A stretch of 64,000 nucleotides of DNA, taken from NCBI GenBank assembly GCA_900169235.1, contig FWCC01000121.1, forward strand, positions 62,001 through 126,000, read 5' to 3'. This DNA comes from Zarea fungicola (taxonomy: Eukaryota; Ascomycota; Sordariomycetes; Hypocreales; Cordycipitaceae). This document shows, one piece after another, positions 4,874 through 25,060 of the stretch. The number at the start of each line of letters is the position of its first letter. The first letter of the stretch is position 1. Below the pieces are notes generated by a model, which was not told the DNA's origin, ran no database searches, and worked only from the letters and a program-made list of their open reading frames with translations. A program made the position numbers and the translations under genes.

Positions 4874-6513
4874 ATGATTGATACAATTATCAACTTCTCA
4901 TTCATTCTTTTGATTGGTGCTGCCTTCCTTGCGCATCGCCTGCTAAGAGGCAGCAGGATGGCACTTCCACCAGGGCCGGCAGGGTTACCTATTATTGGCA
5001 ACGTGCTGGATCTACCACCCAAAGGAGAGCCTGAGTACAAGCACTGGCTTCCATTCAAGGACAAATATGGTTTGATAAGCTCTGTTACTGTTCTGGGCCA
5101 GACGATGATTATCCTCCACAGCAGGCGGGCGGTGATTGATATATTAGAAAACACATCTTTAAAGACGTCAGGCCGGCCTAGCTTTACCTTCGCTTCAATG
5201 TGTGATTTTGAACGAATCCTTTCTTTCAAGCAATATACGCCAACATGGCGCAAACATCGCAGAATGTTGCATCAAGAAATGGGAACAAAGACAATCGCAT
5301 CACAGTTTCAGGATATCCAAGACATAGAATCAAGGCGTCTTCTCTTTAAAATACTCAAAGATCCACAGGCCCTTAGCCCTCATATTAAAACGTAAGGGTT
5401 TGATTATGAGCCTATCTTAACCGTGCTGATTGAATTTTTCATAGGTTGGCTAGCAGTGTCATCTTGAAATTGACGTATGGCTATAATGTCGACCCGCAAC
5501 AACCAGACCCATTGGTAGGCTTAATTGAGAGAATGATGGATAATGTTTCAAAGGTCTTTGTACCTATGTCGTGGGTAGTTGATTTGTTGCCTCCTCTTAG
5601 GTACCTGCCAAGCTGGCTTCCTGGCATGCAGTTCAAGACGACCGCTGAGGAGTGGCGCAAAATAAACGACCAGGTAGGCGACGTGCCTTACCACTTTACC
5701 CAGGAGCAGATGAAAAAGGGCGAAAATCGGTCATCTTATGTTTCTAAGAAGATTTTGGAAGAAACTGGACATGGTACAAGGGAAATTGACCCTGATGTGG
5801 AGGAGGTGATCAAGTGGAGTGCAGCTATAATTTACGGCGGAGGTGCCGATACGACTTCTGCCATTATCAGGGCATTCTTTCTTGCCATGGTCATGTTTCC
5901 AGATGTACAGAGGAATGCGCAGAGAGAAATCGATACTGTGATCGGTTCCGACAGACTACCCGGGGAGCAGGATCAAAAGAATCTTCCGTACATTTCGGCT
6001 ATTATCAAAGAGACGCTTCGCTGGTTTCCACTCACGCCAATGGGTGTTGCCCATGTAAGCGAAGCCGAGGTTCACTACGAAGGATACGTCATCCCAAAGC
6101 ATTCGGTCATAGTACCAGCAACATGGTGGCTCCATCACGATCCGGAGGTCTACCGCAACCCCGACGTTTTTGAACCCGAACGTTTCTTATCGCCGCGAGA
6201 TGAACTGGATCCCATGCAGACCGCTTTTGGCCATGGCCGGAGGGCTTGTCCTGGAAAGTTCATTGCTGAGAGTAGTTTGTTCTTGGCACTGTCGAGAGTT
6301 TTGGCTGTTTTCACGACCTGTAACGCCACGGATGCGTTGGGGAAGCCGATTGAAGTTAGGCGGCAGTTTTTACCAGGAATGATTGCCCATCCAGCAGAAT
6401 TTCCGTTTGACGTTGTGCCAAGGAGTCGTGCTCACGCAAATCTGATTGAAGAAATCGAACGGCAGACACCATGGGAGTCTGGGGACGCCAAATTTCTTGA
6501 TTTTCAAACTTGA
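4874..6513 (+). CDS. Cytochrome P450 monooxygenase (microsomal class)
   Basis: Exons 4874-5391 and 5445-6513 give about 528 aa. An N-terminal hydrophobic anchor (residues about 5-22) is followed by the Pro-rich hinge LPPGPAGLPIIG. The I-helix GGGADTT, K-helix ETLR, a PERF region (FEPERFL) and the haem loop FGHGRRACPG are all intact, so this should be an active haem-thiolate monooxygenase at the ER. The sequence resembles the large fungal group often labelled O-methylsterigmatocystin oxidoreductase-like; the substrate cannot be read from it. Its position beside indoleamine dioxygenase and kynureninase makes aromatic-ring hydroxylation of a kynurenine-pathway product possible. I did not see the cluster's CGG-N8-CGG element in its promoter, so membership of the regulon is unproven. 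The 3' end converges on the IDO gene. Confidence 0.93.
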
Positions 6514-6851
6514 ATTATATTTTTGTACCTTTGCCAGCCTTCATTATCGCAGCTAGAACGTCAAGGATGGTAGTGTTGGCGGGTAGTCGGTGGCTATACA
6601 TGGACAACATAGGTACCTTTGCGGTAATTTTCAATGCCTCTTGGCAATAAAATAGGCTGTAAAAGTCCATTTATTGACTAGTGTCTAAAAGGCTCTATAT
6701 TTGAGACTCATTTAATCTACTTCCTAATTGGAATGATTCAGCTTCGACTAGGCCACTGCTATATCTTGCCCTGCAACCTGCAAGCCTTCTGGTTTTGGCC
6801 AGCATTGTATTCCTAACATTGCAAAGTTACTAACCTAAGAAGTAGAGTATG

Positions 6852-8188
6852 TTATACCTGGGAGACTAGCAACGTCTCGTCTCTGGCCTGTTTTAGAAAT
6901 GGCACCAGAGTTGTTCCGCCTGTGCCAGTCAATTCCTGGTCTCCCGACTTTTCACTCGAAACCGTGGCCAGATTTCTTTGTGTCATTTCCGATGACCCTG
7001 TCTGTCTCGAAGGAAGAATAATGTAGCGCGTGACAATTTGGATATGTTTGTCCCGGAAGCTACTCAGCGCCTCGACCGCTGCAACATATGCTGTTCGTAG
7101 CTCCGTCTCGGTTTGTGGGGAGTCTTGTACGGCCTTCCTTATGCTTTGTGCTTTGGATATGTATTCCAAGAATCGTTTGTGTGGGCCCGGCATATAATCA
7201 CGAACTTCGTCATGGAAGCTCTTTTGGCCAGCGCTACCATGCGAGTTGTGATCAACGCCGAGCACAATGTCAAAGAACTGAATTAGCGAGCTCTGGCCAT
7301 TGCTTCCCCCTCTCAGATGCTTCCACTCTCCCTTGCCATTGCCGCAGTCGAAGAAGATGCCACGAGGAAGGCCAGCATGCTCCATATTCTTGCTGCCTGC
7401 AAGAAACGGCCGGATCTGGTGATAGAAAACAGCCGGGGCACACGATTCGTACATCCTGACCATGATGGCACTGACGTTGTCAATACATATGCGTAGATCA
7501 TTCAATGCCTTTGTGATGACGATATAGTCACTACTTTCGGTGGCTTCCATGGCTTCCAACATGGTCTGAATGATACCAGCAGCCTGTGTTTCCATGACGA
7601 TACTCAGCATCAGAAACCATCTCTCATCTTCGGTTCCGGTAAATGAAACAAGTACATCCAGGTCGTCTATGTTGGAAAAGTCATACTTCTTTATGCTTTT
7701 AAAGTTCCACAAGTTAGTTACAGCGTACGATACGCCTGGTGGCATCTCGACATGCTCGGCAACCTCCAGAAACGGAATGGCAATCTGCGGTGGAAGAACC
7801 TAGTATACAAGTATCAGCATCTTTGGTTGTCGTGCATGCCACTTTTGTACGTGACTCTTACATCTTTCGGCTCATCTCCGCCCCAGGTATGAGCGCTTGT
7901 CAGATAGGCAAGGATCACGTGTGCCCGGCGCCATTCGGCCTCTGACCGAAGACGTGACGGGGACAGTGTTGGAAGCTTCGCAATGGCATCGCGAATAGTG
8001 CCATTTCGGATATGCTTTGGCAATACTGCCACTATCCGCTCCCATGGTAGGTAGTAACCATCTGACAGAAGTTCAGGCATGCTTTCTGCTGGTAGAAAGG
8101 CATTTTGAGTAATGGAAAATTGAGACAGGTCGATAGTCACTGCTGCAGTCGTCTGTTGTTTGTCCCGTGAAAGGTTGTTAACAGTCAT
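6852..8188 (-). CDS. Indoleamine 2,3-dioxygenase
   Basis: Exons 8188-7862 and 7799-6852 give 424 aa, the usual size for a fungal IDO. The haem enzyme opens the indole ring of tryptophan to N-formylkynurenine, the entry step of the kynurenine pathway. Family landmarks are clear: the LWNF region, the block FFDIVLGVDHNSH, YMPGPHKRFLEYIS, the proximal haem-ligand helix KHIQIVTRYI (His) and the C-terminal GTGGTTLVPFLK. It is transcribed divergently from kynureninase across a 586-bp shared promoter, and catalyses the reaction two steps upstream of that enzyme. Fungi often carry several IDO paralogues; this one looks dedicated to catabolism, since no 3-hydroxyanthranilate branch genes sit nearby. 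Confidence 0.93.
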
Positions 8189-8589
8189 GGCGGAACACGG
8201 ACTCCAGATATTCGGTACGCAGGGAATATATCAACGGAACAAGTTGCAGGTCTAGCTACCAGGTTCTAGATCAACAGTCATGGGTAAAAGAATCCAAAGT
8301 CAAGTTTTGCATTCTAGTATGTCAGAGATGGAATTTATTGTTTGTCGCGAATAAGCCCCAAGTGCTTCAAATGAATAACAAGCACACTCTGTAAGAGAGC
8401 CTTTTGTAAGGGAATTCTGGTCATTTTGGCCCACTTCGTCTGACCGATGAACGCCACGCGGACTTTGCCTAAAATCGTATTTTCAAGTCACAACTAACGA
8501 GTTAGTAAAGGCCCGCTTTCCGATTACAACTATCCACTTTCCGTTCCGGAGGTCCCTCATGTCATGTTGGCATGAAGAGTGGAGGGTAT

Positions 8590-8603
8590 CGGGGAAGAGC
8601 CGT
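8590..8603 (+). promoter_or_regulatory. Near-match to cluster motif CGG-GG(N6)-CGG
   Basis: CGGGGAAGAGCCGT: the first half-site and GGAA flank match the shared cluster element, and the second triplet is CGT rather than CGG. It lies in the shared promoter between IDO and kynureninase. Confidence 0.45.
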
Positions 8604-8774
8604 GGTCCGTCAAGTTCGAGGCTTACATTTTGTCCCAGAACGAAGCGTTTGCTTGCCATATTATGACCGAAGCAGTACATTATGCTGTACATTGATTTTC
8701 GCGAGTATCAACCCCCCTACTCACCAGCGGCAGTCAGCTAAGTACGCAATTAAACCCTTGTCAGGCTCGATATC

Positions 8775-10397
8775 ATGTTTTCAAACTTCGTCCACCGACT
8801 ACGAAGCGGCCAACCTGTGGAATTTCCATCAGACTCCAACACTATCGCTTTTGCCCGTCGGCTAGATCACCAAGACGATTTGGCTTATCTGCGGGACGAG
8901 TTTGTGCTTCCATCAAAAAAGTCACTCAAGAAGACAAGTCTAGATGGTTCTGTCCCAGGTATGTATAAATCCTCGGGCTATTACGCAAACCAAAAGAATA
9001 AGCCTCCGCAATCTTACATGACAACGCTAACATACATAACAGTCCAAACCACGCTCACTACTGGGACTGCCGAAAATGAGGAAAGAGAGCTATCGGAGGA
9101 CGAAACGTCCCTCTACTTTGTTGGAAACTCGCTTGGTGCACAGCCAAAGGCGGTAAGGCGCTGTATAGAAGCTCAGTTGGAGACCTGGGCTTCTCTTGGC
9201 GTCAAAGGTCATGTAACTCCGATGGAGAACTCGCCCCTTAATCCTTGGCAAGATCTGGCAGAGGATTGTGCCAGAAAGTCTGCCTCGATGATTGGCGCTT
9301 CACCAGATGAGATTGTCATAATGAACACTCTGTCCGTGAATCTGCATCTCCTCATGGCCAGTTTTTACAAGCCAACCCAAAAACGCAACAAAATTATCCT
9401 CGAATGGAAGCCATTTCCCAGTGATCACTACATTATCGAAAGCCAGATTGCGTGGCATGGATTTGATCCACTGCAGACCATGATCAAGATTGAGCCAGAT
9501 TGTGAGGAAAACGCAGTCATCAGCACCGACAAAATTCTTCGCGTTATCATTGATCACGCCGAAGATGCAGCGCTTATTCTGCTCCCCGGGGTCCAATACT
9601 ATTCCGGCCAGCTATTTGACATGGCCAAGATTACTGCTCATGCCAAGGCCAGAGGCATCATTGTCGGCTGGGATCTGGCTCATGCGGTAGGCAACGTCGA
9701 GCTTAAGCTTCACGACTGGAATGTCGATTTTGCGTCTTGGTGCACTTACAAGTACATCAATGCCGGGCCCGGTGCAATTGCTGGTGCATTCATTCATGAG
9801 AAGTATGGCCAGGTCGAATACCCAACTGGGCCGGACCATCCTCCCCGCTATTGGCCGCGTCTGGCAGGCTGGTACGGCGGTGATAAATCTGTACGGTTTA
9901 ATATGGATAATTTATTTGTTCCGACTGCTGGTGCTGCAGGCTATCAGGCATCTAATCCCTCGGCTATTGATTTGGCAAGTCTTTCGGGTGCACTATCCGT
10001 GTTTGAAAAGACTTCGATGCACCAGTTGCGTAGTAAGTCGCTGTTGATGACGGCTTACGCAGAGTATTTGCTCGATGCCATTGCTCTAAAGTTTGCTGAA
10101 AGCAGCACCAGCGGCGATGAAACAATCCCACCTTTTCTGATTATTACGCCTAGGGATCCGTTGCAGCGTGGAGCGCAGATAAGTGTTTTGCTGCGTAACG
10201 AAGGGCTAGTAGCCTCGGTCGCCAGTGTCTGGGACAAGTACGGAGTAGTGTGTGATACCCGTAAGCCCAATGTGGTTCGTGTCGCCCCGGTGCCTCTGTA
10301 TACAAGATTTGCAGATGTTTGGAGATTCATGCAGCTGCTTGAGGAAGCCCTGAGCCTGGGAGAGACGAAAGTAGATTTACCAACACGTATAGTATAA
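8775..10397 (+). CDS. Kynureninase
   Basis: Exons 8775-8958 and 9043-10397 give 512 aa. The intervening GTATGT...AACAG is an in-frame intron, so reading straight through would add 28 spurious residues. This PLP enzyme (fold-type I) cleaves kynurenine to anthranilate and alanine. The signature includes YFVGNSLG near the N-terminus, the PLP-aspartate segment GWDLAHAVGN and the Schiff-base lysine in WCTYKYINAGPG, followed by RLAGWYGG and the C-terminal domain with VRVAPVPLYTRF. It cleaves kynurenine, or 3-hydroxykynurenine if a KMO acts first; no KMO is visible in this window, so anthranilate is the likely product. Divergent from IDO. Confidence 0.95.
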   Translation: MFSNFVHRLRSGQPVEFPSDSNTIAFARRLDHQDDLAYLRDEFVLPSKKSLKKTSLDGSVPGMYKSSGYYANQKNKPPQSYMTTLTYITVQTTLTTGTAENEERELSEDETSLYFVGNSLGAQPKAVRRCIEAQLETWASLGVKGHVTPMENSPLNPWQDLAEDCARKSASMIGASPDEIVIMNTLSVNLHLLMASFYKPTQKRNKIILEWKPFPSDHYIIESQIAWHGFDPLQTMIKIEPDCEENAVISTDKILRVIIDHAEDAALILLPGVQYYSGQLFDMAKITAHAKARGIIVGWDLAHAVGNVELKLHDWNVDFASWCTYKYINAGPGAIAGAFIHEKYGQVEYPTGPDHPPRYWPRLAGWYGGDKSVRFNMDNLFVPTAGAAGYQASNPSAIDLASLSGALSVFEKTSMHQLRSKSLLMTAYAEYLLDAIALKFAESSTSGDETIPPFLIITPRDPLQRGAQISVLLRNEGLVASVASVWDKYGVVCDTRKPNVVRVAPVPLYTRFADVWRFMQLLEEALSLGETKVDLPTRIV

Positions 10398-10611
10398 AGT
10401 AGATAGAAATCAATGCAATCTGCAAGTTGAAGTGCTGTCTCTCCATCGCCTGGCACTTTCTTACAACATTGTCTAATCAGTCGTCAACCTCGATTTCAAT
10501 TTACTGTACAACACTTCGTCTGTCTAAGGCTTCAGCAGGATAATAATTTCTTCTTATTCACGTCAAATCTACAAAGCCATTCAATTCCGCAAACTTCGCA
10601 GCTTTGGTTGA

Positions 10612-12049
10612 TCACGCAGAGCATTGAAAAACCCCTCTTGTCGTACCCGTCTTGAACTGGTTCCTCTGGTAACAGAATGTTAGTATTCGCCCAGTTCAGC
10701 ATGATTTTAAATACACTCACAATGTCAACAATGGCTGCATATGTACCACACACAAGTATCACAATGCCAACAATGAAAGAAAATGCGGAAAGCAGCGCAT
10801 TGACTCTGTTGCCTCTCGAATACCAATGCCCCTCTTTGACCAGCTTGAGCCACATAACGGCAGGTAGGTAAAAGGAGAACCCAGAGACAAATAGAGCAGA
10901 GCAGAGACCCAAGAGATCATAGAATATTGGGATGGCCTCTGCAACGACAAAGGCTAGGATAGTGAAGACAAAAAGTATGCCAAGCCAGGTCACCCAGCCC
11001 AATGGCGTGTTGACATAGCGAATGATGGAATGCTTAAAAATACGCCCAAGTACATAGCGGCAGGCAACAGTCGAGTTAATGGAGCCTGATATAAAAATAA
11101 CTGGTAGTGCGAACCCAAAGGCAATTTTGGCAATGAGATTTCCTGCCGAGAGAATTGCCGGTGCTTTAACGTTCATGCCGACAAATGCAAAGATGACGGA
11201 ACCGGTTATAGTGTAAATGACAATTTGTGCGATGCCGAGCACCCAAATAGCCTTGATGTAGTCCTTTGGGGTGTGCATTTCATCGAGAAAAGAGAATTGC
11301 ACCATGGCAAAGCTATAAGCAAAGACAATGTTTGTCATGGCCAGAAAAGCATCAGTAAACGTTAGGCCGGGTCGGGGCCAGGCAGACCATTCAGCTAATA
11401 CGTGGCTTGATTGGATGCCTGTGGCAATCATTGTGATGAGAATGGCTATCAAAATGGATCCAAAGTCGATGTAACCAAGGATGGCCATCTCCGTGAAGGA
11501 TGGAGGAATAGCCAGTAGAAACAAGATGGCGGCTGACACCACTCCATACACCACCAGGCATGTGTTGTGAGAATCAGAAATGGTAGACAAGGCGATTGTC
11601 CCTGTAAGACAGTGCGCTCCCACTAACAGGACCAACTGCACCAGGAACATGGCGCTGCCGATTTCAAAGCCGGCTTTGCCAAAAAGCAGGCCCATTGCCT
11701 CGCCGTAGTGGCTGACTTCAGGAAATTTGAGCTTAACCTGGCCAATAATGTGGCTGGTGTATACAGTGATGAGCCCAATGCCGACGCAGCAAATGACGCC
11801 GGCAACCATGCCCAGCGCGGCAAAAGCAGCGGGAAGACTCAAACTGCCAAGGGCGATGGCTTCCACAATCAGTACCACAGTGAGCCGCTTCCAGCCTAGA
11901 CGATGGAAATGAGCTTCACCATCCGCAGTTTTGACCCTTTCGAGGTCGGCCTGCTTTCCCATGTTGCTGTCGGTTGAATTAGTAATGTGCTGAGTGTTTG
12001 TCGCCATACTGTCCTTAGTTGGCGATGATTCTAGTGAAATCGGGCTCAT
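10612..12049 (-). CDS. AAAP-family amino acid transporter
   Basis: Exons 12049-10721 and 10665-10612. A GTGAGT...TTACCAG intron near the end gives the family-typical tail (...VDIRNQFKTGTTRG...) instead of a longer read-through tail. About ten to eleven membrane segments begin at LTVVLIVEAIALGSLSLPAAF, the conserved first helix of the AAAP/PF01490 permeases. An upstream in-frame ATG exists at 12136; I chose the Met at 12049 (MSPISLESS), and 12007 is also possible. Expected role: plasma-membrane uptake of amino acids. Tryptophan, kynurenine or anthranilate are inferred from context only. A CGG-GG(N6)-CGG element lies at 12237-12250 upstream. Confidence 0.9.
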
Positions 12050-12236
12050 GTCAGCAAAGCTCTTATGCGCAATCATGAGAAAGAAAAGGAAATGAAGTTG
12101 AAAAGAGACAAGTAAATTCGTTTTGAGACGCGGCAAGTCTGCTTGAGCATCAAAATCAGAGCGATTCAGAATCCGGGGAACCGCATTCTAATAGTGTCAG
12201 AAACCAATCATGGCGTCTGGGGTCAACTCCATACTC

Positions 12237-12250
12237 CGGGGCTCTGACGG
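12237..12250 (+). promoter_or_regulatory. CGG-GG(N6)-CGG element, permease promoter
   Basis: CGGGGCTCTGACGG, an exact match to the shared direct repeat, about 190 bp upstream of the permease start. A further CGGGGAA half-site with no second CGG lies at about 12176. Candidate Zn2Cys6 binding site. Confidence 0.6.
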
Positions 12251-12531
12251 ATCGGGTGAGGGCCGTGCTAATCCAAGCCATCCGAACACGGCAACAAAAG
12301 ACAAAGGTGGAATTGCAATATCTCTTATCGTATTGGCCAATAAATGGCGGTATTAGCATGTGAGATAAGAGAAATACGGAGGCCAACCATCTTCGGCGCC
12401 CGTTTACAAGACCCCGTCTCACTGACTTGACAAATTTGGTAATTTTCATAATAGCACAATTTCAGCCTGCATTTATGCAAAAGTAGTTTAATATGAAACG
12501 GACAAGTATCTAGAAATTTGAAAAATGTATT

Positions 12532-13521: not shown

Positions 13522-13768
13522 AATAATACGGGCTTTTTTTTGAATTCAAAGCTGGTAAACAATGAACCAATCCTCGAATGAAGGTCACTGCGACTTGTGC
13601 TGAATCCTGTTCTTCCAGCTGACTTGCAGGATGCCGGTGTGATGACATGGGCATGTAGCAGGATATTACTTCGACGATTAAAATTTGATTTCTAATCAAG
13701 TAATTGAGCGTCATATCTTGTTTAGCGTTTCAAAATATACCAGCTGGCCTATATTTCCCCCCAGTCTT

Positions 13769-13782
13769 CCGTCGGCGCCCCG
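13769..13782 (-). promoter_or_regulatory. CGG-GG(N6)-CGG element 1, formamidase promoter
   Basis: On the minus strand CGGGGCGCCGACGG, an exact match, about 250 bp upstream of the formamidase ATG. Confidence 0.6.
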
Positions 13783-13817
13783 ACTTGTAATCAGAGACCG
13801 GCTACGGATCGACATTT

Positions 13818-13831
13818 CCGACTTGCCCCCG
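13818..13831 (-). promoter_or_regulatory. CGG-GG(N6)-CGG element 2, formamidase promoter
   Basis: On the minus strand CGGGGGCAAGTCGG, an exact match 49 bp from element 1 (between five and six helical turns if both are measured from their starts). Two exact sites in one promoter strengthen the case for regulation. Confidence 0.6.
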
Positions 13832-15312: not shown

Positions 15313-15326
15313 CGGGGAACGAACGG
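15313..15326 (+). promoter_or_regulatory. CGG-GG(N6)-CGG element between gentisate dioxygenase and hydrolase
   Basis: CGGGGAACGAACGG, an exact match near the centre of the 375-bp divergent promoter, so one site could serve both genes. Confidence 0.6.
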
Positions 15327-15521: not shown

Positions 15522-16710
15522 ATGCCGGTCGTCTGGAAACGCCTGATTCGTTTCGTTAGCACAGATGGCCGCGTCTTACGTGGTGAGCCCATCATGCCAG
15601 CGGTAGATTTCGACCTGGGCAATACCAACGAAGCGACTGGGCTACAGGCCAAGGTTCTTCAAGGAGACGATATCTATGACGAAACCGGCAACACAAAAAT
15701 CACAGAAGAGGTTGTGACAGTCAAGAAACTGCTTGGGCCTCTCTCTCAGACCGATGTACCAGTCCTGCGCTGCGTTGGCCTCAACTATGCGACGCATGGT
15801 ATCCTATCCCCCTACGCTGCATAGAGCTGTGCGAAAATATGGATCAGTAAAACTAATACGTTCTGATTAGTCCGTGAAGCGGGAAGACAGCCGCCACCAT
15901 TCCCTTTCATATTCCTCAAAACACCATTCACTGTGCTCAACCATGGCGCTGACGTGGTGATTCCCAAGATTGCTCAGGATGATCAGGCCGATTACGAGGG
16001 TGAGCTTGTAAGTTTGTTTCCGGCTAACCGCGTGAGGAGATACAATGCTTTTTTGTTTTCCTTTCTCCTGCTCTATCCGACAGTCTTTATTTTCTGTACT
16101 TTTTCTAACACGCATTACATCCAGTGCGTCGTGATTGGGAAGGATGCCAAAGACGTGTCTGAGTGGGAAGCAATGGAGTATGTAGCTGGATATACCGCTG
16201 GAAACGATATTTCCTCCCGTAAACTGCAACGGGATCCGGCATTAGCTGGGACTGTGCCACAATGGGGGTTCTCCAAGGGGTTCGACACATGGGCGCCGCT
16301 TGGTCCAGCGATTATCAGTCGTGATCTCATCACGGATCCGAGCGCGCTCAAACTGACCACCACGATTGATGGACAGGTAAGACAGTCTTCTGGTCTTGAT
16401 GATTTGCTCTTTAGCGTTCCGTATCTCATCTCTTACCTTTCGACCGGCACCACATTGGAAAAGGGAAGCATCATCATGACCGGTACTCCAGGTGGTAAGT
16501 TACGTCGCATTACATTGTCTTGACGAGCAAGAAACAGAGTGAAAGAATAATGTATTCTCACATTGCATACCATGGAAGTACTGGCTAAGCAACTCATACC
16601 TAGGGGTCGGTTCTGGTCTGAGGCCGCCGAAATATCTTGTACCGGGAACAGTCATGGAGGTCCACGTGAGTCAGATTGGCACGTTGCGAAATGGTGTCCA
16701 GTTTGCATAA
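15522..16710 (+). CDS. FAH-family hydrolase, probable fumarylpyruvate hydrolase
   Basis: Exons 15522-15798, 15871-16007, 16125-16494 and 16604-16710 give 296 aa. The fumarylacetoacetase fold is recognised from CVGLNYATH, FLKTPFTVLNHGADVVIP, the metal-binding glutamates in DYEGEL, YTAGNDISSRKLQ and IIMTGTPGGVGSG. In the gentisate pathway this family cleaves fumarylpyruvate to fumarate and pyruvate. Its head-to-head arrangement with gentisate dioxygenase supports that role over acylpyruvase or the tyrosine-pathway enzyme, which is usually longer. The start at 15522 (MPVVWKRLIRFV) is the first Met giving the family N-terminus. Confidence 0.9.
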
Positions 16711-17023
16711 ACACCTGCCGCCCAGGAGCTAGCAAATAACAGCTACTATCAAACCAAAGAAATGGCGACAAGGCTGATGCCAAGTACCGGAATATCAGTA
16801 CACAGACCTTCGGAAGGTGGAGCAATCTTGTAACATAACTAGTTGGTGGCGCTTCGGAAGCTTGGTCAATGGCGTAACTATTGGTTGCCAACCAGAGTAA
16901 AACAAAACAAGGGGACGGGGAGCCGGTGTAAGAAATGATGCGTTTTCCTAAGAATATCTTTCAACCATATTCAATTTTATCCCGCTCTGTCTATTCAGCC
17001 CATTTGAGACTTGCTGCGTTGAA

Positions 17024-19754
17024 ATGTTTGCTTCCAATGATCAGCAAAACCAAGAACGTGTGTCGCTTACCAGTTTAAGCCGGCGCCGTACGGCACTCGC
17101 CTGCACGACGTGCCGTACCCGTAAATCTAGGGTACGTTTGAATCCATTCCCTTTTTGCTACAAGGAGTAAGGTAGAGCACCTATTCTAACAAGAGGTGCT
17201 GTTTGCGTCACAGTGCAATGGGGTGCGGCCACGATGTTCTTCCTGCCAGAGGATGGGCTTTGAGTGTGTCTACGAAGAGTCGCACTCGGCATCCAATGTC
17301 ATTATTAACAAAGAGCATGTCAAGTTCAGATCTTGCATTTCTGTGTGCATGCGAGTGCTAACAGATTGCAGCCATTTTGTCAATATGAAATCGCGGCTTC
17401 AAGCTCTGGAACAGCTGGTGATGCGCCATGACGAGCGCCTTGGCAATGGCGCGAGCAACAGTACCGACAGTAGCGTGCCTGATCAAGACCTTGGAATTGA
17501 TAAGTCGAAAGTGTCGGATGATGGGGCAGTTTTTGTTATTGTACAAGATCATAGGTCCGAAGACAAAGAAGATACTGGCGATGAGCTGGACGGCATGGCT
17601 ATATCATTAGTCGATGAGCGCGATCCTGGCTATTTCGGTAAGACTACTGCCAGGGCACCAAGCATAATCACTCGGGAAATGCTTAGCAAAAGAACAACAA
17701 ATATTAACTGGGATACTCTTTATCCTGCTCAGGACCTTCGTCAAACGTTTCGTTGATGCGCACTATCTTCCAGGCTCTGGCGCGACGCAACTGTATTCTT
17801 GGTCCCCTGGTGTTCCCACCTTTGAGTGCGAGCAGAAGTCTGGTGACGGAGGAACAGGAAGCTGCACTTCCTGAGACTTTGCCAATCAATATCGGCTATC
17901 TTCCAGCACACGACGAGACGGAGCGCCTGCTGCAGCACTTTTTTTCCACGACGGGCGTGCTTTTCCCTTATATCCATGAAGTTTCATTCATGGAAACGTA
18001 TCATAGTATCAAGCAACAAAACTTTAACGGTAAAGTTCGGCGGATATGGCTTGCACTTCTCAATGTCATGCTGGCCATGGCTATGTGCGAGAGCAGTCCG
18101 GAAAACTCGGCAGACGTGTCCAAAGCAGCGAAGTCACATGTATTTTATCAACGATCTCAAGCATTGTGTGGTGAACAGATGCTTCAGGGCACCACTCTGG
18201 AGACTGGTAAGACGGCCAACCTGTATTGGTGCTTAAAATTCTACGAATATATTCATTATTGTAATTTCGGCGCTGATACCTATCCCTTAGTGCAGTATCT
18301 TCTGCTGGCTAGCCAGTACCTACAAGGTGTACAAAAGGCAATGCAGACATGGATAACCCATGGACTCGCTGTCAAAGCCGCTCTTTCCATTGGCCTTCAT
18401 TCACCTGTAAGGTCCAATGCTTGGTCGGCCATTGAACTGGAAATGCGAAAGCGCACCTGGCATGGGTGCATCGTTCTCGATCGGTGTGTCTTCAATAGTT
18501 CTAAATGATGAAATGGCTCTTAGCTAACTCCGTGTTATACTAAGCACGCTCAGTATGACATATGGTCGTCCAAGTACTATCCCCGAAGAATACAATCAGC
18601 TAGAGCTTCCTGTTGCAATCAATAATGATGGGGACGGCAACCGAAGCGTCGCCTTTTTCACCGCCACGATGTAAGTTTTACAGCCACTATGCCTGGTTTT
18701 GTAAACTTCCAGCAAAGTGGTTTATCATAAAATTATTCAATTCTAACTGTTTTCAGAACGCTGTACAGACTACTTTGGCAAATCATGGCCACCTTGTATG
18801 GCCATAATCTAGGGTTTGAAACTTTGTCTGCGGTTGAGACAATCACTCGCATACTCCAGCTACAGGATAAGATGAACGAATGGAAGCGTGCTCTTCCAGC
18901 AGAGCTATCATTAATATCGTCCACAGCCACTTCAAACGTCAACATACAAGCCGCTCCCATGGAGAAATATCGTTTCATTCTTACACTGCGCTATATGAAT
19001 GCCAAGATACTCCTTTATCGGCCATTGATAGTCAACATGCTACAAGAATTAGCGCCAGTGACCTCTTCACTCAGAAACTCAGGATTCCAAGGGCAACTGA
19101 CAGATCACCTGCAAACAAATCTAATGGAATGTTGCCTTCAATCCGCACAAAATATTATATTATTAATCAGCGATGTTCTTTGTCGTGAAGATCTTGGAAC
19201 AAAAGTCCTTGGGGCATGGTGGTTTACCGTCTACTACAGTATGCTAAGAAAAGCTTGAACCTACTGCCATCCAATGACTGATATCAACAGCTTTTAATGC
19301 ATCCTTGGTTATTTTTGGAGGGGCTGCAGCCAGCCAAATCAGCGGTCTTCGTGATGTGGAGCGACTCAGCAGAGCAAAACTAACGCTTGAAAAAGCTATA
19401 GACGCACTGAATCGCCTAGGCCGGGGCCACTCATTACTTGACCGATGCATCATTTACATTGCACGACTGGTCAAAGTTATCGACGAATGGAGTAAGAGAT
19501 GCCGTAACCCAGTTACATTAATTCACTACCTGTACTAACATGCCAAAACCCATACAGTGATCCAGGAGAGAAAGATTATTGAACACATAAACGTAGAAAG
19601 CAGAGCAAACCAGGGTTTGTCTAGAGGGGGAGGTCACGGCATAGCGGGCGGGGCTACCTTTCCCATATGCGAAACCACGGAACCTGACGAGGAACTTGAA
19701 CTAAATCCATTGCTTAATGACGAGTTTGAACACTGGTTCGGCGAGTTACACTAA
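17024..19754 (+). CDS. Zn2Cys6 transcription factor (cluster regulator candidate)
   Basis: The gene starts at MFASNDQQ. Exon 1 ends at 17131 and exon 2 starts at 17214, completing the binuclear cluster CTTCRTRKSRCNGVRPRCSS with a final Cys in GFECVYE. A coiled-coil linker (MKSRLQALEQLV) follows, then YFGPSSNVSLMRTIF, which appears only after removing the 17638-17732 intron; without that step the gene looks frameshifted. The fungal-specific regulatory domain (LLQHFFSTTGVLFPYIHEVSF ... MRKRTWHGCIVLDR ... TYGRPSTIPEEY) runs to 19754 with further introns around 18485-18550, 18672-18755, 19235-19290 and 19490-19558. Zn2Cys6 proteins bind CGG triplets, so this gene and the one at 22.15 kb are the candidate readers of the CGG-N8-CGG elements. 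Confidence 0.9.
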
Positions 19755-20015
19755 GACTGAGGAAGCAACCCTTCCTATTTGACCTGTCATTCCAAAGTAG
19801 CAAATATGAGAAGCGCTTCTTGAGACGGGGATAGACTTTCTGCAATAAGCACGCGTACATAGTGATTTATCACCCGGCATTACCAGTATACTATCAAACA
19901 TACAGTGAAATGACATTACTATTCTTGTCTTCATTTCTGGTTCTGGCTTGCTTCTCGTTTCTTGAACCAGCACTCCCCTGCCCACTCCTTGCCTCATCCT
20001 CCACGCCTGCGATAA
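19755..20015. other. Convergent intergenic
   Basis: A 261-bp gap between the 3' ends of the Zn2Cys6 gene and the flavoprotein gene. AT-rich, presumably terminators or poly(A) signals for both; no gene seen. Confidence 0.5.
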
Positions 20016-21677
20016 TTACTCAGTTGCCTGACGGTACCGAGATTGCATTATACTCTTCACGTGCTCTTTCATATCATATCTAAGCAGAAATTAACCCTAC
20101 TTTCCTCTCTCTTCAATATGCCTCTGAAATGGTGTTGGCCTACTCACTGGTTCATCTCTTCAATGGTCAATTTACCAGACTCGTCTGCGACCGAGTATGC
20201 TTTGTTACTTTGGTTGCTCGAAAACCCTATAAAAGATGTCAGCTCTGTTCATGGATAGTCAATCAATGGCTGCATTGCAGCCAGACGGGTGGTCATTACC
20301 AATACGCTCATTGATGTTTTGCCGAGCTCGTGCCGAAGCAGCCTGGACTTTGGTAGCACGAGGCTTCCGAACCTCTTCGAATATCTCCAAGGCGGCCTTT
20401 ACATCACCTTTAAAGTGCTCCTTGCTAAACACCAGCCCAATGGTGGCGGCATCTTCAATCGTCTGGCAGGCACCCTGGCTTTGATCGGGCATCATCTATA
20501 CACAAACTGTTAATACGATATGGACCGGCATCTTGTGCCACATTATATGCAAGCTGTGATCCTTTGAGGAAAAAGCTAGGGCTAGTCAACTTACCGGATG
20601 AGCTGCATCTCCCATAATGCAGGCGACACCTTTGTGCCAGTATGGATACGGCTCATGTAACCATAACCTCCATGGCCGAACCTCGTACCCTTGTTCGAGA
20701 TGTTTAAACACCTGACGGTCCAAGTCCGGGTAAGGTGCAAGCAACTCCTCCACCGTGGCCTCTTGATCCCATGTCTGCGCCGTCAGGTCCCCGGCTTCCC
20801 GGGGGAAGAAGCAGTAATACGAGAGCAGACGGCCGCCGTTACAAGGAGAGAGCACAATCTTGTAATGTGTATGATAGCCGCCCCAGTACTCTAGGGCGCT
20901 ATTCTTTGAATAGTCGACTAAGCCAAGCTCAACAGCTTTGTCCGTGTCGACATTGGTATGCAGACATGTACATGTTGCCGGAGTCCGCACCGACTCGATA
21001 CCAATAGCCTGACGGATGGTCGAACCAATGCCGTCTGCACCAATGATGACATCGTGCTTCACTTTGTTTCCATTGCTGAATTCAATTGCTCCAGTTTCTG
21101 CATTGATGGATTGAGCCTATATATATGAATGTGATGTTAGTTGTGTCAAAGATGGTGCCAGACGTAATGAAAGCAAAGAACGAGAATGTTGCTTTCCTTG
21201 TGGTTGAGAACTAGCTGGGCAGGACTTCCATCGCCGTTTTCACCTATGGCGCTGGCTTTTAGCATGCTATGCATGTATTGGCGGTGGAACATGTAGTAGT
21301 TCTGTCATTGGTAGGTTAGCTGACAGAATGGGTGTGGTGGGGGAATAAACGATCGGGCAACCTACATATCCCCATTCTTGTTTATAATTGGACAGGTCGT
21401 AGACACTGACCGGCTCTCCCGTCTTCCAGTCACGGCTGATGAGTTTTTCCAGCACTACAGGATCCCCCAAGGAAATATCCACCGCCCATTCTTCAAGCCA
21501 ACGGGTACCATTGGCGGCACACGATATCGATGCTCCGACTTCACCGGCAAAGTCAGCACGCTCATAAATGGTTACCTTGTGGCCCTGCCTGCGAAGAGAG
21601 GTTGCTACAGCCAGGCCACCAATACCACCACCAATAACGGCGATGTCCAGCTGTTTCCACTCTAGCTGAGAAGCCAT
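20016..21677 (-). CDS. FAD-dependent aromatic monooxygenase, salicylate-hydroxylase-like
   Basis: Starts at MASQLEWKQLDIAVIGGG; the Rossmann FAD motif IGGGIGGLAVAT, the DG motif HDVIIGADGIGS and the GD motif MGDAAHP are intact. Several introns interrupt it. One follows WGY (near 21367) and leads to the NYYMFHRQYMHSM segment. Two near the end (20299-20227 and 20147-20080) restore the tail (NINERIGFSSN..., LTIEEMNQYDMKEH) to a stop at 20016, so the gene is complete. The family hydroxylates ortho- or meta-substituted benzoates using NAD(P)H and O2: salicylate hydroxylase, 3-hydroxybenzoate 6-hydroxylase and anthranilate-acting relatives. Here it is the obvious candidate for converting anthranilate or a derivative towards gentisate. 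Regiochemistry and deamination cannot be read from sequence. Divergent from the second Zn2Cys6 gene. Confidence 0.9.
20780..20793 (-). promoter_or_regulatory. CGG-GG(N6)-CGG match inside flavoprotein coding sequence
   Basis: The minus strand reads CGGGGACCTGACGG, an exact motif match inside an exon. It is most likely a chance or coding-constrained occurrence and is listed so the background of the motif can be judged. Confidence 0.25.
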
Positions 21678-21841
21678 TGTTGTTCTTGTTCGTGTTGGTT
21701 TCCTTGGATTGGTAAATAGATTTGTGATTCTTCCTGAGTTTTGATAGAAAGTAAATTAAAAAAAAATCAGAGAAGGCTGACATAAGGGAAATATGTTATT
21801 TGAGGAATTGTATTCCTATTTTAGCTTTATTGCATTGAAAT

Positions 21842-21855
21842 CCGATCAATCCCCG
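21842..21855 (-). promoter_or_regulatory. CGG-GG(N6)-CGG element, flavoprotein / second regulator promoter
   Basis: The minus strand reads CGGGGATTGATCGG, an exact match about 165 bp upstream of the flavoprotein ATG, within the divergent promoter shared with the second Zn2Cys6 gene. Confidence 0.6.
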
Positions 21856-22149
21856 AAAGAAGCATGAAACCGGCGGATGAATTAGCTACCCTATATTGGA
21901 TTCGGTGTCGTCCCGCAACAGGCTTAAAAGGCTCCAAGAGTGGCGCAGAACGTGATTATTAGTGTATTCATCAATGTATCTAATCAACAAAAAGAATTGC
22001 CTATCATCTATCCTGCATTGGCTTTCTTCAAAAGCAGTTTCAACCAAACCTGCCAAATAGCTGAAGACGCTGTCCAAGGTTCCATAACCGGGTAGGAATA
22101 CGAAATTGGCCTGGCTCATTCGCTCTTTGGAACAGATTCGGAACGGAAA

Positions 22150-25060
22150 GTGGATCACAATTCCTACTCCACCTTCCGGGATTCTCGTCGGATGCCTATC
22201 CTCCATCACTGGACTCTTGCAGGAGGTGAGACTGTAAAGCCAAGAATACCCAAGTACCAGGGCAGTATGGCAAGGCACCCACAGCAACAGGCAGACTCTG
22301 GCACAGGCGCCAACGGCACTAAGACCGGTATTGCTTCCAACGATCTAAACAAAAATAAGCTCCTGCGTCTGCGGCCTCGTCCCGAACGCAGTGCGCGACG
22401 AGGGCCCTACGTGCAGCAGGCATGCTATGCGTGCCGGAAGCGCAAAGGTCGCTGTGATGGTAGTCAGCCGTGCTCTTATTGCGAGAACCGCAACTGCGAA
22501 TGCGTCTATTCCGATCCTGGCGCGCAACTTCCCATTACGAGAAGACATTTCCCAGAAGCACAGGATGTTTTCAACACAAGTGTCTTTGGCTCAAGCTCTA
22601 GGTAAGCATGTTGGTAACGGGTAGACGGCTAGCCATGTTTCTTGCTCGGTTGTATGTCATGATGTAGAACTTTACCTATGTAGATGCCTCATTACTTTAA
22701 TTGCCTGTTAATTTATTTTGGCCCCTAAAGACTAAATGGTTACTTACTTAACGGTACTAGATCCATCCTATCAAATATCCCGACGACCCAGGGCCAAGAA
22801 CCCATGCTTACTGGTGCTGTCCCTGGGGACGAGGGAAGAATCTCGGAATGCATAACGGGAAAGGACCACCTGCAAAGTTCTTCGAGCCGTGGGTCGATTG
22901 TAGCAGGAGGCCTTGCGACATCCGCAATACAGGCCAATTGCCCCAGAGCGAGAAGCCAGTCGCAACATTCAAGGACAGACAGATCCTCTACCACAACGTC
23001 CTCGCTAGTCTCCAATTTATCCCGACGGCCTCGAAGGCGACATTACCATGGACCAACGAGCCCCAATTATAGCTTCCATGCCATACGGAGACAATTTACA
23101 GAGCAGACCCGAGACGCCTTGGCACCAGCTTCGAATCGTACACCTACTGCGCAAGCCGCAGCTCTCGAATTGGCTGAAAGTGACAGCGACCAGGATTCGG
23201 TCCTGTCTGTCGCCCTTTGTCATCCTAATGGTACACCAGGAATGGTCACACCGCACTCGCACCCAATCCTGTATCAGACACTAGATGTGTTGGGCAAGCA
23301 CGAGTGTACTCGTCTGCTGCGCGTATACGATCAAGCGCTTGGCGAGTTGCATCCCATCTGCAGTACTGATGAATTAAAGGACGAGGCATGTCGCTTGCAG
23401 GGTAGTAATCTCAGCACCAACGTCTCCCAGGACGTTGGCAATCATGATCCGTTCGAGGCGGAAGAGAACGAGCTTTTGATCCTTAACCTTGCCCTTGCTA
23501 TTGCCATGACTGCCGAGGCGGCCTCTGACTCCGGTCCTGCTACCATAATTTATGAAAACTGCCGAGATTTGGTCATGTCCAAAGTTGCAAGGACTGCATC
23601 TTGCGTAAAGGACGTGGTCGTGGTAATGATGATGGTACGTACTGGTAAATCTCGCTGTTTATATCGCAATGTATGCCGAGCGCGTATGAAGTAGTAAACA
23701 CAAGTGCTTACACTTTCCTACCTCTTGTTTAGGGCTTCTATTACTTTTTCAGAGGGAAGCGACGGCTAGCATGGCGCATGTGCGGTCTTGCGGGTCGGAT
23801 GGCTATGGAGCTCGGTATACATAGCCACAATCACTCGCGGCATCATCACGAGACGGAGGAGCAGGAACACCAGTTGGCTGTCCTATCCTGTACCATACTG
23901 ATCGTGGACCGTCAGTGGAGCGCCGGCACAGGTCTGCCGTCCAACTTTAAGGAGACGGACTTTGACTTGGCCAAGATTGACCGGGTACGTTGTCGCATAG
24001 TACCCAAATCTTTGTGGTTATTGGTCATGCATATGAAGATAACCTTGTGCATGCTAACTGACAGCCGTAGGCATCGACCAACTACCTGACAGAAATGATG
24101 AAGTTTACGCTTATTAGTCACAAATTTAATGAGCCAATCTCCCAGGTGGCTCGCGGCGAGGTTCTGGATCAAGCCAACATTGAAATAGTCGAGTTTCAAG
24201 TTGAACAGTGGAGGAAGCGAGCCCTGGAGTCCCGCAACTATGTCCACCCGGAGAAATGGGACGGCCTGCCTCGGGAACTGCTGCCGCCGCCATGGATGAC
24301 CATTCTCTATTTGCGTGCCAATGCGGTCCGAATCATACTTATTCGTCCCTTTTTTTTGTCCGATTCCGACAGCCATGTCGCAGCCGAGAAGGTTGGACCT
24401 GGTTTAGACCTAGTATCAGATTCTCTCAACGTTTTGTCTATACTAGACCAGACAACAGACGCTTATAGGATGCTGCATCCTAATTTTCAGCATTTTGTCG
24501 CATCCTCATGCGCACTGTTGCTGCTGCTCATCATCTTCATGAAGCAGAACGGAGAAGCGCTGCCCACCGAGTCCGCTGCAACCTATTCACACCTGGTGCA
24601 GCGAAATTTTGAGATTGCCCTCAAGCTGTCGGCCGCATATCAACATTTGTCCCTGGAGTCTCGCAAGCTGTGGCAATACCTGCAAACTATTGGTGAGCCG
24701 TTATTTTCGTGGGGCATTTTACAGGAACCTACATTACGGGAATACAATACGAGGCCGCACTCATCTGGCCAAGCAACCCATAAAGATCAATCCCGCCCGG
24801 AAAAAAGGGATGCTGCTGCTCATCCACAGATGCAACCAGAAGAAGGCGAGACATCTACCGACGATTGGGCACTGCAACGGCAAATACAGAAGACACACCG
24901 CCTTGAGTATGATGGAACCAGCCAGCATGGGCTTGATGGCCCGCAACACCCAACCAGTGGCGATTGGGACCTCGACGAGTTTGCTCCGTTGATTGCAGGG
25001 TGGCCGATGGGCGGCGAAGGGGCTTTCTTCTCGGACGGCATCCATATATTAACGCAGTAG
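22150..25060 (+). CDS. Zn2Cys6 transcription factor (second)
   Basis: Exons 22150-22601, 22761-23634, 23733-23984 and 24071-25060 give about 855 aa; an internal Met at 22270 (MARHPQQQ) is an alternative start. The Zn cluster CYACRKRKGRCDGSQPCSYC ends with ENRNCECVY. The middle section is a long Ser/Arg-rich linker. The fungal regulatory domain then runs through HECTRLLRVYDQALGELHPI, MAMELGIHSHNHSRHH, DRQWSAGTGLPSNF and the C-terminal helices. The tail is acidic and Gln-rich. It lies at the edge of the catabolic cluster, divergent from the flavoprotein, the usual position for a pathway-specific activator. Confidence 0.9.

What the first reader, a model, noticed from the sequence alone, without database searches (positions are those of the whole stretch)
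4874..25060. A cluster joining the kynurenine upper pathway to the gentisate lower pathway
Indoleamine dioxygenase, formamidase and kynureninase (tryptophan to anthranilate) sit interleaved with gentisate 1,2-dioxygenase, a fumarylpyruvate-hydrolase-type FAH enzyme, a salicylate-hydroxylase-like flavoprotein, a permease and two Zn2Cys6 regulators. Each arm is known on its own. Fungal anthranilate is usually described as going through 2,3-dihydroxybenzoate or catechol. A single locus that could take tryptophan to fumarate and pyruvate through gentisate would be a new catabolic route. No kynurenine 3-monooxygenase or 3-hydroxyanthranilate dioxygenase is here, so this set is not the NAD branch.
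Basis: partly seen in the sequence, partly recalled or inferred. Interest (0 to 1): 0.9.

Follow-up and report, generated by a model that had tools for sequence, protein, structure and literature searches.

The report
Fungal tryptophan-to-gentisate breakdown gene cluster
A fungus carries, side by side and apparently under shared control, the genes that turn tryptophan into anthranilate and the genes that break open the ring of gentisate, which suggests an undescribed route for burning tryptophan and a candidate for the missing enzyme that links the two compounds.

Summary
Spliced models give, left to right: P450, IDO, kynureninase, amino-acid permease, formamidase candidate, gentisate 1,2-dioxygenase (GDO), FAH hydrolase, Zn2Cys6, FAD monooxygenase (FMO), Zn2Cys6. 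GDO keeps the iron ligands and the contacts of gentisate's carboxylate and 5-hydroxyl.

Three results tie the arms together. (1) CGGAARGTGGAK occurs 18 times in the 43-Mb genome; 4 lie in this cluster's promoters, in both arms (0 of 300 random sets do as well). (2) In Dactylonectria macrodidyma and Pochonia chlamydosporia, GDO and kynureninase of the same clades sit on contigs of identical length. (3) Both gene trees pair these two fungi. The other three GDO loci have FAH and related regulators, but no IDO or kynureninase.

Weak points: the step from anthranilate to gentisate is inferred. The FMO's closest paralogue sits with a 2,3-dihydroxybenzoate decarboxylase and an intradiol dioxygenase, so it may be a 3-hydroxylase. 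No isomerase lies inside the cluster, so fumarate is unproven. The P450 is probably accessory. My searches found no fungal report of this combination; bacteria have a precedent without genes. New variant of a known cluster kind.

The parts
4874..6513 (+). cytochrome P450 (CYP620-like), 528 aa, 1 intron; probably accessory or a neighbour
   Evidence: PF00067 238.9 bits. Best named hits are other Cordycipitaceae at 56-59%; none of the 120 listed hits is on a contig of 947,865 or 580,226 bases, the ones that carry the linked GDO and kynureninase.
6852..8188 (-). indoleamine 2,3-dioxygenase, 424 aa, 1 intron (tryptophan to N-formylkynurenine)
   Evidence: PF01231 489.5 bits
8532..8543 (-). shared promoter element CGGAAAGTGGAT, in the divergent IDO/kynureninase promoter
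   Evidence: 1-mismatch copy of the 10-mer at 8513-8522
8775..10397 (+). kynureninase, 512 aa, 1 in-frame intron (8959-9042)
   Evidence: TIGR01814 402.7 bits, over cut-off; tree
10532..12076 (-). amino-acid permease (Aa_trans), 514 aa, no intron
   Evidence: PF01490 192.6 bits
12532..13521 (-). kynurenine formamidase candidate, alpha/beta hydrolase, 306 aa, 1 intron; HGGAW and GHSAG motifs
   Evidence: PF20434 42.4 bits; 34% identical to the gene between IDO and kynureninase on C341
14037..15146 (-). gentisate 1,2-dioxygenase (bicupin), 321 aa, 2 introns
   Evidence: PF07883, two stretches; PDB 2d40 3.1e-58 and 2phd 3.6e-46; TIGR02272 251.4 bits, below its cut-off of 442.1
15522..16710 (+). 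FAH-superfamily hydrolase (fumaryl- or maleylpyruvate hydrolase type), 296 aa, 3 introns
   Evidence: PF01557 215.5 bits; PDB matches
16811..16822 (+). shared promoter element CGGAAGGTGGAG, upstream of Zn2Cys6-1
17024..19754 (+). Zn2Cys6 regulator 1, 759 aa, 6 introns; related to the regulators near the other GDO loci
   Evidence: PF00172 and PF04082; tblastn to C115, C240, C124 loci
20259..21677 (-). class A FAD monooxygenase, 402 aa, 3 introns; proposed anthranilate hydroxylase
   Evidence: PF01494; best NCBIfam 3-hydroxybenzoate 6-monooxygenase 155 bits, cut-off 459; paralogue comparison
22144..22155 (+). shared promoter element CGGAAAGTGGAT, FMO / Zn2Cys6-2 divergent promoter
22167..22178 (-). 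shared promoter element CGGAAGGTGGAG, inverted partner of the site at 22144
22192..25060 (+). Zn2Cys6 regulator 2, 853 aa, 3 introns
   Evidence: PF00172 and PF04082; no tblastn match in the stretches fetched around the other GDO loci
38075..38806 (+). zeta-class GST, maleylacetoacetate/maleylpyruvate isomerase type; possible pathway isomerase outside the cluster
   Evidence: TIGR01262 111.9 bits, cut-off 171.05; PDB 3lg6, 1fw1, 2v6k; start codon read

Best explanation
The locus is a dedicated tryptophan-catabolic cluster with a gentisate lower arm. The permease brings in tryptophan or kynurenine. IDO, formamidase and kynureninase make anthranilate and alanine. The FMO hydroxylates anthranilate para to the amino group (C5), with loss of ammonia directly or through 5-hydroxyanthranilate, giving gentisate. 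GDO opens the ring to maleylpyruvate, and the FAH enzyme releases pyruvate plus maleate, or fumarate if an isomerase from elsewhere acts first. The two Zn2Cys6 proteins would switch on both arms through the CGGAARGTGGAK sites. Shown here: gene content, intact reading frames, GDO active-site residues, shared promoter element, and linkage with congruent trees in two other fungi. Inferred: every reaction, the regulator-site pairing, and above all the FMO step.
For: Families. GDO keeps the iron ligands and the residues that contact the carboxylate and 5-hydroxyl of gentisate (alignment; roles from PMC10306065). CGGAARGTGGAK has 18 genomic copies, 4 of them in this cluster and in both arms; no random segment set does as well (0 of 200; 0 of 300 with a cleaner pool); another of the 18 lies before the YjgF gene of the 3-hydroxyanthranilate cluster on C271. 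GDO and kynureninase of the same clades lie on contigs of identical length in D. macrodidyma (947,865) and P. chlamydosporia (580,226). Of six species that I read by eye as named in both lists, these 2 share a contig and 4 do not. Trees: kynureninase clade 99/92, GDO clade 97/92, with the D. macrodidyma and P. chlamydosporia copies as sisters in both. The FMO subgroup elsewhere in this genome sits with 2,3-dihydroxybenzoate decarboxylase, the setting in which U. maydis Srg1 is assumed to act on anthranilate (PMC5082525), and differs from the FMO 7 kb from the C115 GDO (30% over 154 residues).
Against: No enzyme that makes gentisate from anthranilate is known by gene in what I read, so the FMO role has no characterised relative. 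Its C255 paralogue points to 3-hydroxylation. The window FMO and the C115 FMO piece have the same best PDB match (decarboxylative vanillate 1-hydroxylase), so the difference between them says little about chemistry. Presence of FMO, IDO, formamidase and permease in the two other fungi was not tested (3 of 3 protein searches used). The element was found post hoc: its Gibbs score did not exceed shuffles, and mere presence of a one-degenerate 10-mer in 3 of 7 segments was reached in 26 of 60 and 29 of 150 random sets. The GDO/FAH, permease, formamidase and P450 promoters lack an exact site. Same contig is not proof of same cluster.
Confidence: 0.5

Rival explanations
1. Two catabolic modules share a locus and regulators but not a pathway: one burns tryptophan to anthranilate, the other takes salicylate, 3-hydroxybenzoate or a similar benzoate through gentisate. 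The FMO acts on that benzoate.
For: Gentisate clusters with a salicylate-hydroxylase-like FMO, GDO, FAH and Zn2Cys6 are known without tryptophan genes (PMC3914699). The best NCBIfam model for the FMO is 3-hydroxybenzoate 6-monooxygenase. U. maydis Rss1 governs both salicylate and tryptophan breakdown (PMC5082525).
Against: Three other gentisate loci of this genome, without IDO or kynureninase, could already serve that purpose. Linkage of these GDO and kynureninase clades recurs in two other fungi.
Confidence: 0.2
2. The FMO is the classical fungal anthranilate 3-hydroxylase (deaminating). 2,3-dihydroxybenzoate then goes to catechol with enzymes coded on C255, and GDO/FAH serve another substrate.
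For: The closest paralogue of the FMO (62%) sits beside a 2,3-dihydroxybenzoate decarboxylase (PDB 6m53, 5e-188) and an intradiol dioxygenase on C255. This is the route given for A. niger and F. graminearum in PMC7842363 and assumed for U. maydis in PMC5082525.
Against: No 2,3-dihydroxybenzoate decarboxylase or intradiol dioxygenase among the ten cluster genes; the FMO sits with GDO and shares the promoter element with IDO/kynureninase.
Confidence: 0.17
3. The true substrate is already 5-hydroxylated (5-hydroxytryptophan or a relative). IDO, formamidase and kynureninase then give 5-hydroxyanthranilate, which GDO opens directly or after deamination.
For: GDO keeps the residues that contact the 5-hydroxyl. 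The second-best NCBIfam model for the GDO is 5-aminosalicylate 1,2-dioxygenase. IDO enzymes accept 5-hydroxytryptophan (recalled).
Against: Leaves the FMO without a role. 5-Nitrosalicylate dioxygenase, a relative, does not take 5-hydroxyanthranilate (PMC10306065), though it does not take gentisate either.
Confidence: 0.08
4. Chance neighbours, or leftovers of a recombined region, with no joint function.
For: Fungal aromatic clusters have spotty distributions and rearrange (PMC3914699). The P450 looks like a plain neighbour.
Against: Shared rare element in both arms, intact genes, recurring linkage and congruent trees.
Confidence: 0.05

Closest known systems
Gentisate catabolism (GC) / 'gentisate-like' clusters of Ascomycota (Greene et al. 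2014, PMC3914699; A. terreus ATEG_06711-06714, PMC7842363; Scedosporium, PMC8283699)
   Same: GDO, FAH-type hydrolase, Zn2Cys6 regulator and an FAD monooxygenase together; no isomerase in the gentisate-like type; patchy distribution. The Scedosporium cluster also has a P450.
   Different: Here IDO, a formamidase candidate, kynureninase, an amino-acid permease and a second Zn2Cys6 stand with them; the FMO is only 30% identical (154 residues) to the one near the C115 GDO of the same genome
3-hydroxyanthranilate catabolic cluster (Martins et al. 2021, PMC7842363)
   Same: A clustered lower route for tryptophan carbon; one promoter element is shared with this genome's copy on C271
   Different: That cluster has 3HAO, ACMSD, AMSDH and often a YjgF deaminase and cleaves 3-hydroxyanthranilate; none of those is among the ten genes here
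Fungal anthranilate - 2,3-dihydroxybenzoate - catechol route (U. maydis Rss1/Srg1, PMC5082525; A. niger and F. graminearum as cited in PMC7842363)
   Same: Tryptophan to anthranilate, then an FAD hydroxylase; Zn2Cys6 control in U. maydis
   Different: The ring-cleaving module here is GDO/FAH, not decarboxylase plus intradiol dioxygenase; those two lie on C255 with the FMO paralogue
Bacterial anthranilate - 5-hydroxyanthranilate - gentisate route (Nocardia opaca, Cain 1968; indole via anthranilate to gentisate in Alcaligenes In3, Claus and Kutzner 1983; seen only as cited in PMC4539516 and PMC6221969)
   Same: The chemistry proposed here
   Different: Bacterial; the 2018 review says that the functional gene had not been revealed

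Membership tests
Gentisate catabolism (GC) cluster | gdoG-type gentisate dioxygenase | tested here: met
   PDB 2d40 3.1e-58; iron ligands and main gentisate contacts kept
Gentisate catabolism (GC) cluster | fphG-type FAH hydrolase | tested here: met
   PF01557 215.5 bits; paralogues lie on the GDO contigs C115, C240 and C124
Gentisate catabolism (GC) cluster | C6 regulator ctfG | tested here: met
   Zn2Cys6-1 matches regulators near GDO on C115, C240, C124 by tblastn; orthology to ctfG itself not tested
Gentisate catabolism (GC) cluster | sahG-type salicylate-hydroxylase-like FMO | tested here: inconclusive
   An FMO is present but is 30% identical (154 residues) to the FMO near the C115 GDO and 62% to the one on C255
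Gentisate catabolism (GC) cluster | no maleylpyruvate isomerase gene inside ('gentisate-like' type) | tested here: met
   None among the ten cluster genes; a zeta GST lies 13 kb away
Gentisate 1,2-dioxygenase | 3-His iron site plus Arg83, Gln108, Arg127, His162, Asp174 (SDO numbering) | tested here: met
   Read off the alignment to 2phd; roles from PMC10306065. Other pocket positions differ: Ala85 is Val, Met46 and Gln168 are Asn
Gentisate 1,2-dioxygenase | bacterial equivalog cut-off TIGR02272 | tested here: not met
   251.4 against 442.1 bits; a model made for bacterial and archaeal annotation
Kynurenine upper arm | IDO and kynureninase over curated cut-offs | tested here: met
   PF01231 489.5 against 26 bits; TIGR01814 402.7 against 246.4 bits
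Kynurenine upper arm | kynurenine formamidase | tested here: inconclusive
   Only general alpha/beta-hydrolase models match; a 34% homologue sits between IDO and kynureninase on C341; HGGxW motif recalled as formamidase-like
Anthranilate-2,3-dihydroxybenzoate-catechol cluster | 2,3-dihydroxybenzoate decarboxylase and intradiol dioxygenase in the locus | tested here: not met
   None among the ten cluster genes; PF00775 hits lie on other contigs
3-hydroxyanthranilate catabolic cluster | 3HAO in the locus | tested here: not met
   PF06052 only on C117 and C271
Anthranilate 5-hydroxylase (deaminating) | enzyme activity | not testable with these tools
   needs purified FMO and product analysis

The most novel reading that the evidence does not exclude
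Some Hypocreales run a complete tryptophan-to-gentisate pathway from one regulon, and the cluster FMO is the first gene for an anthranilate 5-hydroxylase that makes gentisate, the enzyme missing since the bacterial route was proposed in 1968. This would also give one lineage of the gentisate-like clusters its so far unknown role.
Probability: 0.4. Interest if true: 0.85.

Novelty: new variant of a known kind. Interest (0 to 1): 0.68.

Why it matters
The role of gentisate-like clusters in fungi is called unknown or unclear in 2021 and 2026 papers (PMC7842363, PMC13094099), and the step from anthranilate to gentisate had no gene in a 2018 review (PMC6221969). This locus turns both into a test of one enzyme with a simple product assay. 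The genome also holds lower arms of three kinds for tryptophan carbon (gentisate here, an intradiol dioxygenase near a second IDO/kynureninase set on C341, 3-hydroxyanthranilate on C271), a natural setting in which to ask why fungi keep parallel routes.

Tried and rejected
P450 as core member: not accepted. Its best named relatives are other Cordycipitaceae (56-59%; one unnamed sequence at 81%), none of 120 listed hits shares the 947,865 or 580,226 contigs, and no exact promoter element precedes it. One D. macrodidyma hit (50%) is on a contig of 2,130,175 bases, the length of the contig with that fungus's second GDO (P0002); too large to mean much.

Promoter statistics: a first k-mer and CGG-pair scan gave no clear candidate (CGG-N7-CCG had 3 hits against 0.2 expected and was not pursued). 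Gibbs sampling found the element, but with a score within 8 shuffles (63.9 against 59.1-64.3). A one-degenerate 10-mer with at least five G/C in at least 3 of 7 segments was matched by 26 of 60 random sets. The stricter test (11-mer, at least 3 segments and at least 4 occurrences) gave 0 of 200. The pools held some overlapping loci and short stretches of the cluster itself, so I repeated it on a clean pool of 211 kb: 11-mer in at least 3 segments 5 of 300, with at least 4 occurrences 0 of 300; 10-mer 29 of 150 and 0 of 150. The random segments are not chosen to be promoters.

Kynureninase substrate residues could not separate kynurenine from 3-hydroxykynurenine: the copies printed and the window copy carry the same Gly-His and Ser-Asn-Pro motifs (roles recalled).

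Not done: structure prediction and fold search (not run); a homologue search for FMO, IDO, formamidase or permease (3 of 3 protein searches used); presence of kynurenine 3-monooxygenase; species name of the genome (only Cordycipitaceae-like, from the placement of the C301 kynureninase).

Literature: ten searches with answers (one search listed 12 of 28 papers) showed no paper that describes kynurenine and gentisate genes in one fungal locus. This rests on the listings and on passages of 13 papers; the library holds open-licence papers only.

Full report
WHAT IS THERE. The window is G000:C192:62001-126000 of a 43.1-Mb fungal assembly in 456 contigs. I modelled the genes from splice signals and reading frames (checked): P450 4874-6513 (+), IDO 8188-6852 (-), kynureninase 8775-10397 (+), amino-acid permease 12076-10532 (-), formamidase candidate 13521-12532 (-), GDO 15146-14037 (-), FAH hydrolase 15522-16710 (+), Zn2Cys6-1 17024-19754 (+), FMO 21677-20259 (-), Zn2Cys6-2 22192-25060 (+). 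All ten models begin with ATG and end at a stop, and all have Pfam matches of the expected kind, the formamidase only to general alpha/beta-hydrolase models. IDO/kynureninase, GDO/FAH and FMO/Zn2Cys6-2 are divergent pairs. The kynurenine genes are on the left, the gentisate genes on the right; the permease and the formamidase candidate lie between kynureninase and GDO.

ENZYMES. Kynureninase passes the curated cut-off (402.7 against 246.4 bits), while GDO falls below the bacterial one (251.4 against 442.1). Aligned to salicylate 1,2-dioxygenase (PDB 2phd), GDO keeps the equivalents of Arg83, Gly106, Gln108, His119, His121, Ala125, Arg127, His160, His162 and Asp174, and has Tyr at 104; Ala85 is Val, and Met46 and Gln168 are Asn. 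PMC10306065 (passages) gives Arg83, Gln108, Arg127 and His162 as carboxylate contacts, Asp174 and residue 104 as contacts of the 5-hydroxyl, and Tyr104 as usual in GDOs. So a 5-hydroxylated benzoate is the likely substrate. The best PDB matches of the FMO are decarboxylative vanillate 1-hydroxylase, an FAD-binding protein, tropone 2-monooxygenase, 4-hydroxybenzoate decarboxylase, 6-hydroxynicotinate 3-monooxygenase and a 'probable salicylate monooxygenase'; in NCBIfam it is closest to 3-hydroxybenzoate 6-monooxygenase (155 bits, cut-off 459). That set does not fix the site of hydroxylation.

THE GENOME AROUND IT. IDO matches lie on C175, C301, C192, C341, C55, C100 and C386; kynureninase on C192, C301 and C341, plus one weak hit on C305; GDO on C192, C240, C115 and C124. 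FAH paralogues lie on C115, C240 and C124 too, as do regulators like Zn2Cys6-1. No IDO or kynureninase hit falls on C115, C240 or C124. So 1 of 4 GDO loci carries these tryptophan genes; formamidase was not searched genome-wide. C341 has its own IDO, formamidase-like gene and kynureninase within about 9 kb of a phenol-hydroxylase-like gene (by eye) and an intradiol dioxygenase. C271 has 3HAO with a regulator, an ACMSD-type amidohydrolase, an aldehyde dehydrogenase and a YjgF protein (by eye): the 3-hydroxyanthranilate catabolic cluster of PMC7842363 (passages and all of its section 8). C255 has a 2,3-dihydroxybenzoate decarboxylase, a Zn2Cys6 protein (by eye), an FMO 62% identical to the window's and an intradiol dioxygenase. 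The FMO 7 kb from the C115 GDO is 30% identical to the window's over 154 residues, though both have the same best PDB match.

SHARED PROMOTER ELEMENT. CGGAARGTGG occurs 4 times exactly in the window, all in promoters of this cluster (8534-8543, 16811-16820, 22144-22153, 22169-22178; shuffles 0.17 on average) and 139 times in the genome. Extended to CGGAARGTGGAK it occurs 18 times in the genome (pattern-reversed control 20), 4 of them here. The motif was found after looking. Random sets of 7 segments of the same lengths never gave an 11-mer with one R/Y position in at least 3 segments with at least 4 occurrences (0 of 200; 0 of 300 on a clean pool). Presence in at least 3 segments alone is commoner: 5 of 300 for 11-mers and 29 of 150 for 10-mers, 26 of 60 in a first version. 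Of the 14 copies elsewhere I could look at one, on C271, picked because a 3HAO gene was known near it: it lies between the aldehyde dehydrogenase and the YjgF gene, about 170-180 bases before the YjgF start. The sites cover IDO/kynureninase, Zn2Cys6-1 and FMO/Zn2Cys6-2; the GDO/FAH, permease, formamidase and P450 promoters have no exact copy.

OTHER FUNGI. The GDO search (best 120 of 5394 listed) shows a step: 70-78% for D. macrodidyma (two), Fusarium decemcellulare, P. chlamydosporia, Clonostachys rosea and Cephalotrichum gorgonifer, with two unnamed sequences at 69 and 73%, then 68% and less. The kynureninase search (best 120 of 7865) lists two kynureninases each for D. macrodidyma and P. 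chlamydosporia. The longest-contig column gives 947,865 for GDO P0001 and kynureninase P0128 of D. macrodidyma and 580,226 for GDO P0004 and kynureninase P0202 of P. chlamydosporia; each protein is listed with one contig, so I take these as the same contigs. By eye, six species are named in both lists; the other four (F. lateritium, Neonectria punicea, Microdochium bolleyi, Neoarthrinium moseri) show different longest contigs. In the kynureninase tree (60 rows: 57 of the 120 hits, chosen by me, plus the window and two paralogues) the window, P0122 (unnamed), P0128 and P0202 form one clade (99/92) and P0128 and P0202 are sisters (98/81), whereas the C301 paralogue groups with Cordyceps, Beauveria and Akanthomyces (100/100). 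In the GDO tree (61 rows: 57 of the 120 hits, plus the window and three paralogues) the window groups with C. rosea, D. macrodidyma, F. decemcellulare and P. chlamydosporia (97/92), with P0001 and P0004 as sisters (99/94). The two genes thus share a history that differs from that of the host families (family placement recalled): either transfer of the cluster or an old duplicate lost in most lines. I did not separate these.

MECHANISM. Tryptophan is taken to anthranilate by IDO, formamidase and kynureninase (established family functions). The FMO most likely acts on anthranilate: its nearest paralogue stands with the decarboxylase of the anthranilate/salicylate route, as proposed in U. maydis, where Srg1 is needed for growth on tryptophan and is assumed to hydroxylate anthranilate (PMC5082525, passages). 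Coupled with GDO, the product should be gentisate or 5-hydroxyanthranilate, so I infer C5 hydroxylation. The C. heterostrophus salicylate 5-hydroxylase is a Rieske protein (PMC12130555, passages), so it gives no model for this FMO. Maleylpyruvate could be hydrolysed directly to maleate and pyruvate, isomerise by itself (the model in PMC3914699, passages), or use a zeta GST such as the one at 38075-38806. Fumarate is therefore not shown.

NOVELTY. Greene et al. 2014 find fphG, ctfG, gdoG and sahG fully conserved in gentisate clusters and note that variants prepend one or two steps; tryptophan and kynuren* do not begin a word in that text. FAMeDB 2026 lists eight fungal ring-opening intermediates and calls the gentisate-like role unclear; anthranil*, tryptophan and kynuren* do not begin a word in it (passages and the first part of its results). 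Ten literature searches showed no fungal locus of this kind (listings, and passages of 13 papers). Bacterial precedents exist without genes (PMC4539516 and PMC6221969, passages). Other papers seen as passages: PMC9879434 (F. graminearum, an IDO and a kynureninase with neighbouring tags), PMC8283699 (Scedosporium gentisate cluster), PMC13280823, PMC3534580 and PMC12625712. I call the locus a new variant of a known kind: a gentisate cluster with the kynurenine upper arm prepended.

VERDICT. Observation confirmed; interpretation partly supported; route likely but unproven at the FMO step.

Noticed in passing
window 38075-38806 (+): Intact single-exon zeta-class GST (maleylacetoacetate/maleylpyruvate isomerase type) 13 kb from the cluster; could supply the missing isomerase.
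   Followed up: partly
window 43148-51735 (-): Large polyketide-synthase-like gene: the last stretch has KR, ACP and condensation domains (the rest read by eye only), with a rhodopsin-domain protein and, by eye, another P450, a dehydrogenase-like and a transporter-like ORF to the right. Looks like a separate secondary-metabolite cluster.
   Followed up: no
L030, L031, L045 (C341:1-30499): Second IDO, formamidase-like, kynureninase set, with a phenol-hydroxylase-like gene (by eye) and an intradiol dioxygenase within about 9 kb: perhaps tryptophan to an intradiol route in one locus.
   Followed up: partly
L053 (C271:25500-33499): 3-hydroxyanthranilate-type cluster; the element CGGAAGGTGGAG lies before its YjgF gene, which hints at one regulon for several tryptophan routes.
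   Followed up: partly
L046 (C255:188000-197999): 2,3-dihydroxybenzoate decarboxylase, Zn2Cys6 (by eye), FMO and intradiol dioxygenase together: candidate salicylate or anthranilate to catechol cluster.
   Followed up: partly
L032, L033, L036 with L049, L050 (C240, C115, C124): Three further gentisate loci with GDO, FAH and a related regulator; on C240 and C115 the GDO and FAH are about 12 and 17 kb apart.
   Followed up: partly
L049 (C115) and L051 (C283): Other genes nearby, by eye: aldehyde-dehydrogenase-like and SDR-like genes on C115; a polyketide-synthase-like stretch beside the C283 FMO paralogue.
   Followed up: no
window 4615-4629 and 4634-4648: 15-base direct repeat (acgatgcaggagtac) in the P450 promoter, seen by eye.
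   Followed up: no
window 40064-41704 (-): Very Ser/Thr-rich ORF with a Cys-rich end and no Pfam match; looks like a cell-wall or secreted mucin-like protein.
   Followed up: no
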